From contig OY829328.1 of assembly GCA_963691655.1 (NCBI GenBank), forward strand, positions 5,546,204 to 5,610,203: a stretch of DNA of 64,000 bases, read 5' to 3'. The stretch is from Toxonevra muliebris (taxonomy: Eukaryota; Arthropoda; Insecta; Diptera; Pallopteridae). A program made the position numbers and the translations under genes. Position 1 is the first letter of the stretch; each line of letters begins with the position of its first letter. The notes below the pieces were generated by a model, which was not told the origin of the DNA, did not search any database, and saw only the letters and a program-made list of their open reading frames with translations. Shown one piece after another: positions 17,869 to 33,793 of this stretch.

Positions 17869-20800
17869 ATGACGTCGTCCATTTATTTTAGTAATAGTAA
17901 GTTCGACGAAGCGGTTATAATTTTATCAAGAATGAAATAAAGATTGCAATTTTAGGTATTAACTGACTGCCCAAGTTAATATGAAATTTCCGTTGAAGTG
18001 TTTATCCGCGTGGAAATTTCTTTCTAACTGTGCATAAAAATACAAAAAAGAATTTCTAATTTTAAAAACACTGTTTGATTTTAAACTGTGCAGTTTAGTG
18101 TTAAAAAGAATTGTGAAAAAATAAATATTACTTATTTATTTTGACCTAATAATTTATAACTAAGATAATACTTCAATACCAAAATAATGATGATAATTAC
18201 ACAGTACGGCAAAAAAGTTTCGGCCATCATGTCAGTGTTTCGAGGTACTCCACCCAATATAGCGAAAATTTCGTTTTTGACCACGGTGGGTTAGGTGCTG
18301 TGGCGCTATTTTAAAGCCTGTTCTTCATCCACCCGAAGAGTTTAGGTATCCTAACAGAATCTTCGGACTAACTACGGAGCAATTAGATAAGCTATCGAGG
18401 AAATGTCTCACCAGAAATCTATATCTTGCCAAGCTGGGCATTCAGAAAAAAATAATAATTATTTTTCTCACAAGTTTTCACATCTTCTGCAATGAGTGTT
18501 AAACGATAGACGTAGTTTCTTTGCATAAGTATCTATACACCAGTGTAAATTAGCAGACTTACGGTAGTATCGATACGATTCCTGTTAATTCATTATATGA
18601 AGAACATATCGCGCGCGAGGAAATACTCGACTTTAGTATCTTCCATCCCAATTAGCCAGTTGAATATACTTAGTGCAACTGCGTGCTTCTTTTGACGACT
18701 CTCAAGTGAACCGAATCCGGCACTCCTAAGGATTTGTCAAGAGACGCCCTCAAGTATGCCAAATCATCCGCATGAAAATGCGTGACATCATTAGGTAAAA
18801 TTAATTGCTGCCGCCTGCGGCGAGTGTACCCTAACCCTATCCCACATTTTATTTTAAATCCATCCGTAAAAAAATATATGTCATATTCTGTTTTTGATCA
18901 TATTCAACAACTTTTAAAATCTTCAGCAGATTTGTGTCAATATTCGTACGGAATAATCAATGAAGTACTCTTATTCCTCTTTGTTTTTGCTTTTGGTTTA
19001 TGCCAATCCGACATCTATTTCGAATCGGATCGAGATTATTCAAAAATGATTCATAAAAATATAAATAGTTATTTCTTCTGAAGTTAGCGTGAATGTTGAC
19101 AAAAAATCTTCTACTGATTTAGGTAAGAAAAAACTCGAAAACCTGACGTGGTTACGTAATTTTTTAGACGAAACACGAAGTCTTGTGTGAATTGTCGGAT
19201 TGCTTTGTATTTTGTGTTAAATTGATTTGCCTCCAATCTTTCTGGTTCTCGAAGTAGGACTTACTAAGTTTAAAGTATTTAGTAAGCGAAAATGCTGTTG
19301 CCGACAATGAGAAAGGTTCATGTTTTATTATCACCAACGGGCCGCTGTCTAGTATTGGTGACCATTATTGTGTATACATTGCTTGAAATATTTTATTTTA
19401 AATTTTAATAAATATTTAATGAAAATTAAGTTCAGTAAAATCTTGTTACCTTACCTAGAGAGTCCGAATAATTCTCAAATTCTTTCTTCATAACTATAGC
19501 GAATCGTATTTTATACTTTTTTTAATTAACTTACTATTTATTTTCTTTACAGCTTTAACAACGCAGCCCTTGTGGAGATTCCTAGTACTATTTACATTAC
19601 TTACGTACGTGCAACCAAGTCAACAACAACAACCCGCAATGGCTAACATAAACGAAGAATTCGCTAAACAATCATCGCTGTTTTCTGCTAAACTCTACAA
19701 TGAAATATCAAAACCGAATTCCAATGTTATCTTTTCACCATTTTCCATACAAGCCTGCGTAGCAATGGCACGAATGGGTGCTACCGGTGAAACTGCTAAG
19801 GAAATGGATAATGGCTTAAATTTTGTATCCAGCGATGCTGCTTCTATAGCCGACACATTCTACAATATCTTGGCCAAATATAAGGATAGCACAATTTTGA
19901 AAATCGCCAATAAAATTTATGTGAATGACGGTTATACCATTCAAAAGGAATTCAATGAAATCATAAAAAATAAATTCTTATCGGCAGCTGATTCAATAAA
20001 TTTCTCACTGAATACAGAAGCTGCAAACACCATTAATCAATGGGTCGAATCGAAAACAAATAATCTGATTAAAAATCTCATTTCCCCCGGTGATTTGGGA
20101 GCCCTGACCCGTTTGGTTTTGGTTAATGCGATACACTTTAAAGGTGATTGGCGTCATCCATTTGCTAAGCACAGCACCCAGACTGAGGACTTCTATTTGA
20201 ATGAAGTCGATACCGTGAAAGTGCCCATGATGAATTTGCAAACCGATTTTCCTTACGCCAATTTGCCTGAATTGGATGCGACCGCTATACAGATGCCTTA
20301 CAAAAATTCTGATTTATCAATGTTGGTGATTTTACCAAATTCACGCACCGGTCTTAAGAGCTTAGAGCAGAAATTGAAAACGGTTTTATTAACCGATATC
20401 ACTAATAAAATGTCTACACAGAAAGTGCAAGTTAAATTTCCAAAATTCAAGGCAGAATTCTCGGTCGAATTGAATGGACCATTACAGAAGGTATGGATAA
20501 GAATAATGGATAGTATTTACACTTAAATACTTATTTAAAATTTCTATATATTCTTTCAACTACAGTTGGGTATGTCACGTATGTTTTCTGATAATGCTGA
20601 ATTTTCCAAAATGCTGGAATCAGCTGAAGGAATTGTGGTTTCAAAAGTTATACATAAGGCATATATTGATGTCAATGAAGAAGGCACTGAAGCTGCTGCT
20701 GCTACAGGTAAGAAAAAATAAGTTTTCTCTTTTTAATAAGAGCACCTGCTTGCATTTTTATCTACATAAATGCTAAATTACAATAAATTTAAATGAGTTA

Positions 20801-21777
20801 CATATGTACAAATTTAAACTGCCCAGTTTACAGTTATAATTACACTAAGCAACAGGTGAACAGATTTTCTTCCTAAAGTGAATTCAGTTAAAAGTTACAT
20901 CAAAAACAATAATGCCACAACGTATGTTAGTGTAAGCCAATGCGTTTATCTCAATATATGGTGTGGTTTTTCTTGTCATATTTCAGATTTTCTTTCTAAT
21001 AGTAATCACTTCTGAACCTCATCCACAAACATTTTGCACTTACATTGAAAATAATAATTATTTTGAAATGTCCTTAATAATTTCAATACTGAAGTACAAG
21101 AATGTAAAAATTCTGTTCTCTATAAACCAAAACAAATCTATTTTGAAAAAATTGCAATTGCAATCATTAAAAAATTATTTCAAAACAAAAAATTATAACT
21201 CAACTTCAAATCTGTAGTAAAAAGTTCAACAAGGGACGTTCAATTTACATAAGCGTTCTATTTATGAATGTTATGCGGTTTTATATTGAATTATTTAATG
21301 ATTCGAAAAACAGTAATTTGAGCTTAGTAGTCAAATCCGAGCAGAGCCAATTATAATATTCACATAGAAAATTGGTTCACTTATTGCTTAGTTTTCTAAC
21401 AATATTAATTTTAGATTTATTTGTAATTTAGTAAAAGCTTACAGCATATTTAAATGTATATGAATGTTTAAACACAGTAATTCATTTTGTCGTACTCACA
21501 TTATTCTATGTCTGTTTTGTCTCATTGTCTCTTTCCATATTATATTTTCATTTAAGGCGCGATCATCCGAAAGAAACGCAGTGCAAATCTTTACGCAATT
21601 GATCCCATACAGTTTATGGCCGATCATCCATTTTTCTATTTTATAAATCATCAAGAAAAGCCAAGCACTGTCGATGATAGTAGTACAAAATCAATTTCAC
21701 CAATTCCATTATTTACGGGCACTGTGGTATCCTTGAATGATGCTGCAGTTTCCTCGAATGAACATGATGAACTATAA
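17869..21777 (+). CDS. Spn42Da: Spn42Da orthologue, isoform with RKKR loop and HDEL tail
   Basis: Exons: 17869-17896 (predicted), 19553-20490, 20566-20707 and cassette A 21557-21777, giving 442 aa. The small first exon is supported by ATG, a GTAAGT donor and correct phase. It makes residues 1-38 a signal-like segment (hydrophobic [13 protein letters not shown], 17-29). Met39 would start a cytosolic form, and both kinds of start are known for the Drosophila gene. The body shows [32 protein letters not shown] and [15 protein letters not shown]. The third exon ends in the hinge [12 protein letters not shown] plus one base, a fixed phase-1 junction to any downstream loop exon. Cassette A adds GAIIRKKR then S, a multibasic site at 374-377 matching the furin-inhibiting loop of Drosophila Spn4A, and ends in HDEL (439-442), an ER-retrieval signal. 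The isoform is therefore expected to restrain proprotein convertases in the secretory pathway. Nine further intact terminal exons follow to 33793. AATAAA lies at 21875. Confidence 0.92.
21557..21777 (+). CDS. Spn42Da: RCL cassette A (convertase-type, ER-retained)
   Basis: Terminal exon after the acceptor TTTCATTTAAG, entered in phase 1 (g+gc makes Gly). The loop is [16 protein letters not shown] and the C-terminal strands follow as [14 protein letters not shown]. It is the longest cassette (72 codons after the split Gly) because of an acidic, Ser-rich tail ending EHDEL. P1 is the last Arg of RKKR, which sits one residue further out than the P1 count of the other cassettes; the Drosophila homologue has the same spacing. 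It is closest to the constant exons, so it is probably the default terminal exon. Confidence 0.9.
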
Positions 21778-22184
21778 ATGAAATTGTATACATATTATGT
21801 GTTTAATTAGTTGATTTATTTTGGTATTAATTTATTTGGGTTAAAAAATTCATATATACTTGGAATATTTATTTAATAAATAATAGTTTTCAAATAATAA
21901 CAATATACATGTTTGCTTTACTTTTTTAAGAATGTGTTACAACATTTTCATGCACAAAAATTATATTACCCTCGCAGTATGATATGATAACATACTTATA
22001 TCTTTTGCCGTTAGCTATATATGCTATATAGATATGCAGATATTTATTGGCATGGGATTAAATTAATGAAACAGACAGTTAAAATAACGATATTTATTTT
22101 TTTTTTTACTGTCCTTAATAGTGAATACCTACAACGCCTTTCCACACAATCTTTTATTGCCTTCATCTTTAGTGTAGATATGGG

Positions 22185-33408: not shown

Positions 33409-33581
33409 CTTCCATTATTCGTGCACGTTCAATGGTACCGAAACCGGAACCGGAAATATTCATTGCTGATCACTCTTTCATTTATATGATAAAAAATTCA
33501 GCAAATGTTTTATTTTTTGTTGGAAAATTATCAAATGTATCAGATTTGAGAAACACGCAATACCCGCGAAAGGAATTGTGA
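33409..33581 (+). CDS. Spn42Da: RCL cassette J of Spn42Da (Arg-Ser loop, long tail)
   Basis: Acceptor TTTTCCAGCAG, phase 1. The tandem CAGCAG allows two in-frame acceptors (exon start 33406 or 33409) that differ by one Ala. The loop is ASIIRARSMVPKPEPEIF, then IADHSFIYMIKNSANV and LFFVGKLSNV, followed by a 15-residue extension ending PRKEL. Nominal P1-P1' is Arg-Ser, so a trypsin-like target is expected. The extension recalls the tail of cassette A, but RKEL is not a standard ER-retrieval signal. Confidence 0.85.
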
Positions 33582-33656
33582 ACTCCATTTCTATTAAATT
33601 ATTAAAATTGCTTATTTAAAATATTATGGATTTTTTTTTTAATTCTTTTTTTGCAG

Positions 33657-33793
33657 AAGTAACTGTGGATGGAGATATGCTTATTCTTGAGGAAGATCCT
33701 GTTATGGATTTTAAAGCTGATCACCCATTTTATTATATTATCAAAAATAGAAATAATTTTCTTCTATTTGTGGGAAGTTTTAAAAATAAATAA
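33657..33793 (+). CDS. Spn42Da: RCL cassette K of Spn42Da (acidic loop, last exon)
   Basis: Acceptor TTTTTTTGCAG, phase 1 (g+aa makes Glu). The loop is EVTVDGDMLILEEDPVMDFK, then ADHPFYYIIKNRNNF and LLFVGSFKNK. Nominal P1-P1' is Asp-Met in a strongly acidic loop, unlike any other cassette. It starts only 75 bp after the stop of cassette J. It is the most distal intact cassette; no further one was found before CanB2. Confidence 0.85.

What the first reader, a model, noticed from the sequence alone, without database searches (positions are those of the whole stretch)
20566..33793. Array of ten intact alternative reactive-loop exons in the Spn42Da orthologue
The hinge exon ends at 20707 with a one-base overhang. 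Ten downstream exons each start with a good acceptor in matching phase, encode a different loop, share the (A/V)D-K/H-x-F-x-Y turn and last strands, and carry their own stop. Drosophila Spn42Da and lepidopteran serpin-1 are known to work this way. Ten intact units plus three decayed ones would be a large expansion compared with the four or so loops I recall for Drosophila. One gene would then give a panel of inhibitors with different protease targets, chosen by splicing or polyadenylation.
Basis: partly seen in the sequence, partly recalled or inferred. Interest (0 to 1): 0.88.

Follow-up and report, generated by a model that had tools for sequence, protein, structure and literature searches.

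The report
Fly serpin with ten swappable tips
A fly gene for a protease-blocking protein carries ten interchangeable end pieces, each giving a different bait for a different protease; this is a real but already well-known kind of insect gene (Drosophila Spn42Da / insect serpin-1), here with more bait pieces than Drosophila melanogaster has.

Summary
One serpin core (19553-20490) and one hinge exon (20566-20707, ending G|GTAAG) are followed by ten C-terminal exons at the ten stated acceptors, each open in the matching phase with its own stop. A model built only from 117 relatives finds all ten and no second core downstream, so they are not separate genes. The gene is a Spn42Da orthologue: cassette 1 aligns with crystallised Drosophila Spn42Da through the furin-type RKKR|S bait to the C-terminal HDEL, and the core groups with Spn42Da-type rows. 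A related 417-residue ORF on a 1,406-base JGI contig (79% identical) runs through the core-hinge and hinge-cassette joins, so it looks like cDNA. No RNA from this genome was examined. Corrections: two decayed copies are supported, not three; the turn motif is exact in 7 of 10; the fly falls outside the sampled tephritids. Ten loops exceeds D. melanogaster's four but is ordinary for insects: a published survey gives a mean of 7.32 serpin proteins per C-terminally spliced gene, and one wasp gene has 21 (PMC10513286). New member of a known kind; modest interest.

The parts
17869..17896 (+). candidate first coding exon for a secreted form (ATG, donor A|GTAAGT, phase 1); with exon 2 gives a hydrophobic signal-like stretch
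   Evidence: sequence; inferred, no transcript; a second candidate with the same phase is 17135-17216; the first 11 residues of P0001 match neither
19553..20490 (+). constant serpin core exon; internal ATG (MANINEEF) could start a form without signal peptide
   Evidence: profile of 117 relatives E 3e-140; aligned with PDB 4p0f
20566..20707 (+). constant hinge exon, ends [10 protein letters not shown] + G, donor G|GTAAGA
21557..21777 (+). cassette 1: furin-type loop RKKR|S, in-frame insertion, C-terminal HDEL
24656..24807 (+). cassette 2, predicted P1/P1' I/S
25505..25638 (+). cassette 3, predicted P1/P1' T/S; counterpart in P0001
26132..26213 (+). decayed copy, closest to cassette 3
   Evidence: nhmmer E 1.9e-9; blastn 78.6% over 84 nt
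26988..27124 (+). cassette 4, predicted P1/P1' C/G
28425..28561 (+). cassette 5, predicted P1/P1' C/G; tandem duplicate of cassette 4
29727..29866 (+). cassette 6, predicted P1/P1' C/S
30384..30514 (+). cassette 7, predicted P1/P1' C/M
31062..31175 (+). decayed copy
   Evidence: cassette profile E 5.4e-6, nhmmer E 0.0013 at 31111-31165; independent profile only E 0.61
31392..31525 (+). cassette 8, predicted P1/P1' G/C (register uncertain)
33409..33581 (+). cassette 9, predicted P1/P1' R/S; tandem acceptor, alternative start 33406 adds one residue before the bait
33657..33793 (+). cassette 10, predicted P1/P1' D/M

Best explanation
This is the Spn42Da (Spn4) orthologue of a schizophoran fly. 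Two constant exons make the serpin core and hinge; the donor at 20707 is joined to one of ten alternative terminal exons, each coding the reactive loop from P7 onward, the last strands and a stop. Each mRNA thus encodes one suicide inhibitor on a common scaffold. Choosing a cassette changes the target protease and, for cassette 1 (HDEL), the destination: ER retention and control of furin-like convertases. The array grew by tandem duplication and decay, with fast change in the bait. Shown here: gene structure, orthology, common descent of cassettes, decayed copies. Supported by a relative's transcript-like ORF: the core-hinge join and a hinge-cassette join. Inferred: use of all ten in this species, the first exon, the target classes, and the control of cassette choice.
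For: One core, one hinge, ten C-terminal exons and no core downstream on the + strand of the window. 4p0f (Drosophila serine protease inhibitor 4 isoform B) matches at E 4.2e-135 over residues 43-442 of the isoform-1 query, including RRKR/RKKR and HDEL. In a 24-row core tree the window groups with 11 Spn42Da-type rows (83/91) apart from two other serpin groups. The 417-aa ORF P0001 on a 1,406-base contig is 79% identical, runs through the core-hinge and hinge-cassette positions, and ends in a cassette nearest 25505. The splice one G after the hinge is the commonest position in insect serpins with C-terminal alternative splicing (161 of 192; PMC10513286). Loop variable, frame conserved: mean amino-acid identity 16% for P7-P1 against 49% for the frame over the 36 pairs of nine cassettes, cassette 1 left out. 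For the closest pair, 7 of 21 loop bases differ against 7 of 84 in flanking intron, Fisher p 0.007. No donor-like site (GTRAGT or GTAAG) within 400 nt after any of the ten stops, so terminal exons rather than the Lepidoptera layout.
Against: No RNA reads from this species were available. AATAAA follows 9 of 10 cassettes before the next acceptor (searched to 900 nt), but it occurs at 2.6 per kb in this AT-rich window, so it proves little; cassette 9 has only ATTAAA. Pooled over nine cassettes, pN/pS in the loop is 0.82, not above 1 (0.52 in the frame), with high synonymous divergence (pS 0.69 and 0.63). A region search with cassette 5 found no relative. The closest labelled hits are named '42Dd-like' or 'alaserpin' by their sources, not 42Da. 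The fork that unites the window with the Spn42Da rows has only moderate support, and some long branches are flagged there.
Confidence: 0.93

Rival explanations
1. Only a few cassettes are used (for example 1, 3 and 10); the others are recent or dying duplicates that are rarely spliced in.
For: Two decayed copies lie in the same array, so cassettes do die. Acceptors 21557 and 33409 fail a simple filter. Only one cassette type (25505-like) is seen in a joined relative. The Pteromalus authors themselves allow noise for some isoforms (passages of PMC10513286).
Against: All ten are open with in-phase acceptors; pooled pN/pS in the frame is 0.52, so the frame has been under some constraint.
Confidence: 0.25
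2. The cassettes are last exons of separate complete serpin genes.
For: Two other complete serpin genes lie in the window, on the minus strand, each with its own hinge and last exon.
Against: No serpin core or hinge occurs on the + strand after 20707 in the window; the cassettes are 0.1-2.9 kb apart, the largest gap being 21777 to 24656 (coordinates).
Confidence: 0.02
3. The array is a cassette reservoir kept mainly for gene conversion or exon exchange between loops, not for ten separate products.
For: Exchange of loop cassette exons in serpin genes is described (passages of PMC2556349); cassettes 4 and 5 share 90% over 221 nt.
Against: Cassettes 4 and 5 differ most exactly in the bait, opposite to homogenisation there; expression of many loops is documented in other insects.
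Confidence: 0.05

Closest known systems
Drosophila melanogaster Spn42Da (Spn4)
   Same: Same core (PDB 4p0f), two constant exons followed by loop exons, furin-type loop with HDEL, alternative N-terminal exon there and probably here (PMC4006314, part 1 of 4 read; PMC3252376 passages)
   Different: Four loop exons there, ten here; the other loops here differ; cassette 1 here has an in-frame insertion, as do Ceratitis, Musca, Glossina and Teleopsis relatives
Spn42Da of Drosophila outside the melanogaster subgroup
   Same: The furin exon is kept and the others duplicate and diverge; C/S loops in D. ananassae, persimilis, pseudoobscura and willistoni and D/M in grimshawi (passages of PMC2770083)
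   Different: Up to six novel P1/P1' pairs are listed per species in the passage read; ten cassettes here
Pteromalus puparum PpSerpin-1
   Same: One extra G after the hinge, alternative C-terminal exons, two N-termini (PMC10513286 sections 6-8)
   Different: 21 C-terminal forms in a wasp gene, all 21 seen by RT-PCR and some tested for targets (passages)
Lepidoptera serpin-1 (Manduca sexta, Bombyx mori, Cydia pomonella)
   Same: Alternative loop exons on one serpin body; counts of 14, 4 and 6 isoforms as given in PMC10671500 passages
   Different: In Cydia the variable exon is the ninth of ten; here no donor-like site follows the stops, so each cassette looks like a last exon

Membership tests
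Serpin (Pfam PF00079) | serpin core and hinge of the inhibitory type ([10 protein letters not shown]) | tested here: met
   hinge fits the inhibitory consensus quoted in PMC2770083 (passages)
Spn42Da orthologue | core closest to Spn42Da among solved structures and apart from other serpins in a tree | tested here: met
   4p0f is the best of 196 matched PDB sequences; groups with 11 Spn42Da-type rows, support 83/91, apart from two other serpin groups. Source names of the nearest hits are mostly 42Dd-like, alaserpin or antichymotrypsin
Spn42Da orthologue | furin-type loop with C-terminal HDEL as the first cassette | tested here: met
Spn42Da orthologue | inhibits furin-like convertases | not testable with these tools
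   would need protein
Insect serpin gene with C-terminal alternative splicing | several loop exons in the same phase after one hinge, splice at +1 | tested here: met
   position compared
Insect serpin gene with C-terminal alternative splicing | mRNAs join the one hinge to different cassettes | tested here: inconclusive
   one joined relative ORF, P0001, with one cassette; no reads of this species
Alternative N-termini (secreted and not) | two first exons | tested here: inconclusive
   two phase-matching candidates, 17135-17216 and 17869-17896, no transcript
Lepidoptera serpin-1 layout | variable exon followed by a shared last exon | tested here: not met
   no donor-like site (GTRAGT or GTAAG) within 400 nt after any of ten stops; weaker donors were not looked for

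The most novel reading that the evidence does not exclude
A lineage-specific burst of loop cassettes under selection at the bait, with four cassettes carrying cysteine at P1 and one carrying aspartate, so that a single fly gene covers convertases, trypsin-like, elastase- or cysteine-type and Asp-specific (caspase-like) proteases, with cassette choice tied to alternative polyadenylation and, in cassette 9, a tandem acceptor that moves the bait by one residue.
Probability: 0.15. Interest if true: 0.5.

Novelty: new member of a known kind. Interest (0 to 1): 0.28.

Why it matters
It adds a clear, countable example of birth, divergence and decay of reactive-loop cassettes on a fixed inhibitor scaffold, in a fly that does not fall within the sampled tephritids. 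The similar pair 26988/28425, which differs most at P6-P2, is a convenient natural test of how the bait sets the target. It does not change what is known about the mechanism.

Tried and rejected
Separate serpin genes: rejected by the six-frame search with an independent profile. Third decayed copy near 25907: a 22-nt match only, not accepted. Tephritid origin: rejected by the core tree. A species name: not reached; the best labelled relatives of the core are about 60% identical, and a search with the neighbouring serpin body (9836-10882, minus) gave at best 62% (an unlabelled protein; best labelled, Lucilia sericata, 61%). Poly(A) hexamers as proof of separate 3' ends: too frequent by chance. 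Dorsal/Dif-like sites in the introns, prompted by PMC10513286: 7 against a mean of 5.8 in 100 mononucleotide shuffles, nothing. Cassette-only protein search with cassette 5: no hit. Structure prediction was not run: a solved orthologue exists and spliced products are not read letter for letter from the window.

Counting notes: the relatives are the 120 listed of 4,943 hits (7,995 candidates scored). Of these, 117 entered the profile (length 370-470; P0002, P0099 and P0100 fell out); 112 gave a usable cassette tail, 106 distinct, other serpins than Spn42Da included; 35 were chosen by hand for the tree. The 21 relatives in the tree were also chosen by hand, from the lists, with two window serpins and the window core added. 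Cassette 1 was left out of the pairwise rate counts and of the DNA model.

I mended the claim about P0001: it shows the core-hinge and a hinge-cassette join; its first 11 residues have no counterpart among the window's candidate first exons, so the first intron is not shown.
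Full report
Observation. The window holds a serpin gene on the + strand. Exon 2 (19553-20490) codes the core, exon 3 (20566-20707) the hinge [10 protein letters not shown] plus one base, G, before GTAAGA. Starting from G plus each exon, all ten read openly to a stop: 73, 50, 44, 45, 45, 46, 43, 44, 57 and 45 codons, and all ten spliced proteins have exactly one stop, at the end. A profile of the ten finds exactly these ten strongly in the six frames of the window. It then finds the last exons of two minus-strand serpins (9463-9624, 2270-2404) and fragments at 26056-26213 and 31062-31175; the reversed window gives no hit better than E 0.4. 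Because those ten match by construction, I used a second profile from 117 relatives that does not contain the window. It finds all ten (E 2.3e-7 to 7.6e-4) and only three serpin cores in 64 kb: this one and two on the minus strand, each with its own hinge. Pfam's Serpin model alone is too weak for such short pieces: 10 of 10 have it as best family, none at the curated cut-off.

Corrections. Two decayed copies are supported and one is not; the independent profile sees the two only weakly, at E 0.2 and 0.61. The turn motif is exact in 7 of 10 cassettes (read). Acceptor 33409 is the second of a tandem CAGCAG; use of 33406 adds one residue before the bait (sequence).

Identity. The isoform with cassette 1 matches 4p0f, Drosophila serine protease inhibitor 4 isoform B, at E 4.2e-135 over query residues 43-442, the best of 196 matched PDB sequences. 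The alignment shows RKKR against RRKR at the bait and HDEL at the end of both. In Drosophila this isoform inhibits furin-type convertases (PMC4006314, part 1 of 4 read), and HDEL is described as its ER retention signal (passages of PMC3252376). The nearest labelled hits carry source names such as 42Dd-like, alaserpin or antichymotrypsin, so I tested the placement. In a tree of 24 cores the window groups with 11 Spn42Da-type rows (D. melanogaster Spn42Da and HDEL- or multi-isoform relatives), support 83/91. It lies apart from five single-form rows with a GIIMM/MIMM-type loop and from seven rows around the two minus-strand serpins; some long branches are flagged. In a tree of 36 cores the window pairs with P0001 (100/100) and lies outside the nine tephritid rows (100/100). 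Its identity to eight tephritids is 55-59%, theirs among themselves 66-94%. I take it for a schizophoran fly of a family I could not name; that label is an inference from the nearest rows.

Evidence for the joins. P0001 is a 417-residue ORF on a 1,406-base JGI contig, 79% identical over 98% of the query. It runs without a break through the positions of the core-hinge intron and of the hinge-cassette intron, and ends in a cassette nearest to 25505 (alignment score 117 against at most 87 within the window). The contig is shorter than the 4.8 kb between hinge and cassette 3 in the window. Its first 11 residues match none of the window's candidate first exons, so it says nothing about the first intron. 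The simplest reading is cDNA of a related fly; an intronless copy is not excluded. It is not RNA from this genome.

Loops. Rule for P1: seventh residue after the hinge threonine, or eighth in the furin type. The rule gives A/S, T/S and V/A for the D. melanogaster entries P0041, P0032 and P0061 and flags P0059 (D. mauritiana) as furin type; with RRKR|A of 4p0f this agrees with the four pairs listed for D. melanogaster in PMC2770083 (passages). Applied here by eye it gives R/S (cassette 1), I/S, T/S, C/G, C/G, C/S, C/M, G/C, R/S, D/M. Cysteine at P1 is found in 11 of 106 distinct relative cassettes and aspartate in 1; these include other serpins than Spn42Da. C/S and D/M are also listed for some Drosophila. 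These are predictions from register only. That a P1 cysteine can serve elastase-type targets in vertebrate serpins is recalled, not from a call.

Evolution. Cassettes 4 and 5 are a tandem pair with spacing 1437, 90% identical over 221 nt. They differ at 7 of 21 bases in the seven loop codons, at 8 of 117 in the rest of the exon including the stop, and at 7 of 84 in flanking intron: Fisher p 0.007 for loop against intron and 0.002 for loop against the rest of the exon. This is one pair, chosen as the closest. Over the 36 pairs of nine cassettes, identity is 16% in the loop and 49% in the frame; pN/pS is 0.82 and 0.52, with pS of 0.69 and 0.63, so positive selection is suggested by the one pair but not shown overall. 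Among the 112 relative cassettes taken from the 120 listed hits, cassette 1 is nearer to other species' furin cassettes (score 114) than to any window cassette (52). Cassette 3 is nearer to P0001 (117 against 87). The other eight score highest within the window, some by a small margin (76 against 74 for cassette 2, 91 against 87 for cassette 10).

Mechanism. Each cassette carries its own stop, and no donor-like site (GTRAGT or GTAAG) follows within 400 nt. So these look like alternative last exons, with choice by competition among acceptors and poly(A) sites (inferred), unlike Cydia serpin-1, in which the variable exon is the ninth of ten (passages of PMC10671500). Cassette 9 has no AATAAA before cassette 10 begins and may use the poly(A) site of cassette 10. 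Two phase-matching first-exon candidates (17135-17216, 17869-17896) and the internal ATG before MANINEEF fit secreted and non-secreted forms as in Drosophila, but no transcript shows them.

Known? Yes. [quoted passage not shown] PMC10513286 (sections 6-8 and passages read) reports 192 of 731 genes in one insect clade with C-terminal alternative splicing, 7.32 serpin proteins per such gene on average, 21 forms in one wasp gene, and the splice at +1 in 161 of 192. PMC2770083 (passages) reports four loops in D. melanogaster and duplicated, diverged loop exons in outgroup drosophilids. Ten is therefore above D. melanogaster and within the insect range. The listings of the searches (some of them cut short) showed no paper on this particular array; with the species unknown that says little.

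Noticed in passing
window 2270-3568 and 9463-10882, minus strand: Two further serpin genes, each with core, hinge and last exon, so the locus is a serpin cluster like Spn42D; both group away from Spn42Da.
   Followed up: partly
window 11345-13942, minus strand: Retroelement in pieces, probably of non-LTR type: reverse transcriptase (PF00078) and an endonuclease-like ORF (below Pfam's cut-off) beside the 9463-10882 serpin.
   Followed up: no
window 21852-22186 with 23076-23133, and 27516-28006: A non-coding segment of several hundred bases present twice (pieces 83-93% identical), inside the cassette array; the piece order suggests that the first copy is interrupted by about 0.9 kb of other sequence.
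   Followed up: no
window 33406-33409: Tandem CAG acceptor that would lengthen the cassette-9 loop by one residue without changing frame.
   Followed up: partly
window 39139-39534 and 55066-57191, + strand: EF-hand protein resembling calcineurin B, and family B DNA polymerase exonuclease and polymerase domains, probably the zeta catalytic subunit; long ORFs just upstream (51843-52349 and 53011-55020) match no Pfam family (domains; both gene names recalled).
   Followed up: no
acceptors at 25505, 26988, 28425, 29727: These acceptors share a TTCTTCTTCT tract (sequence), probably by descent; it could bind a pyrimidine-tract protein.
   Followed up: no
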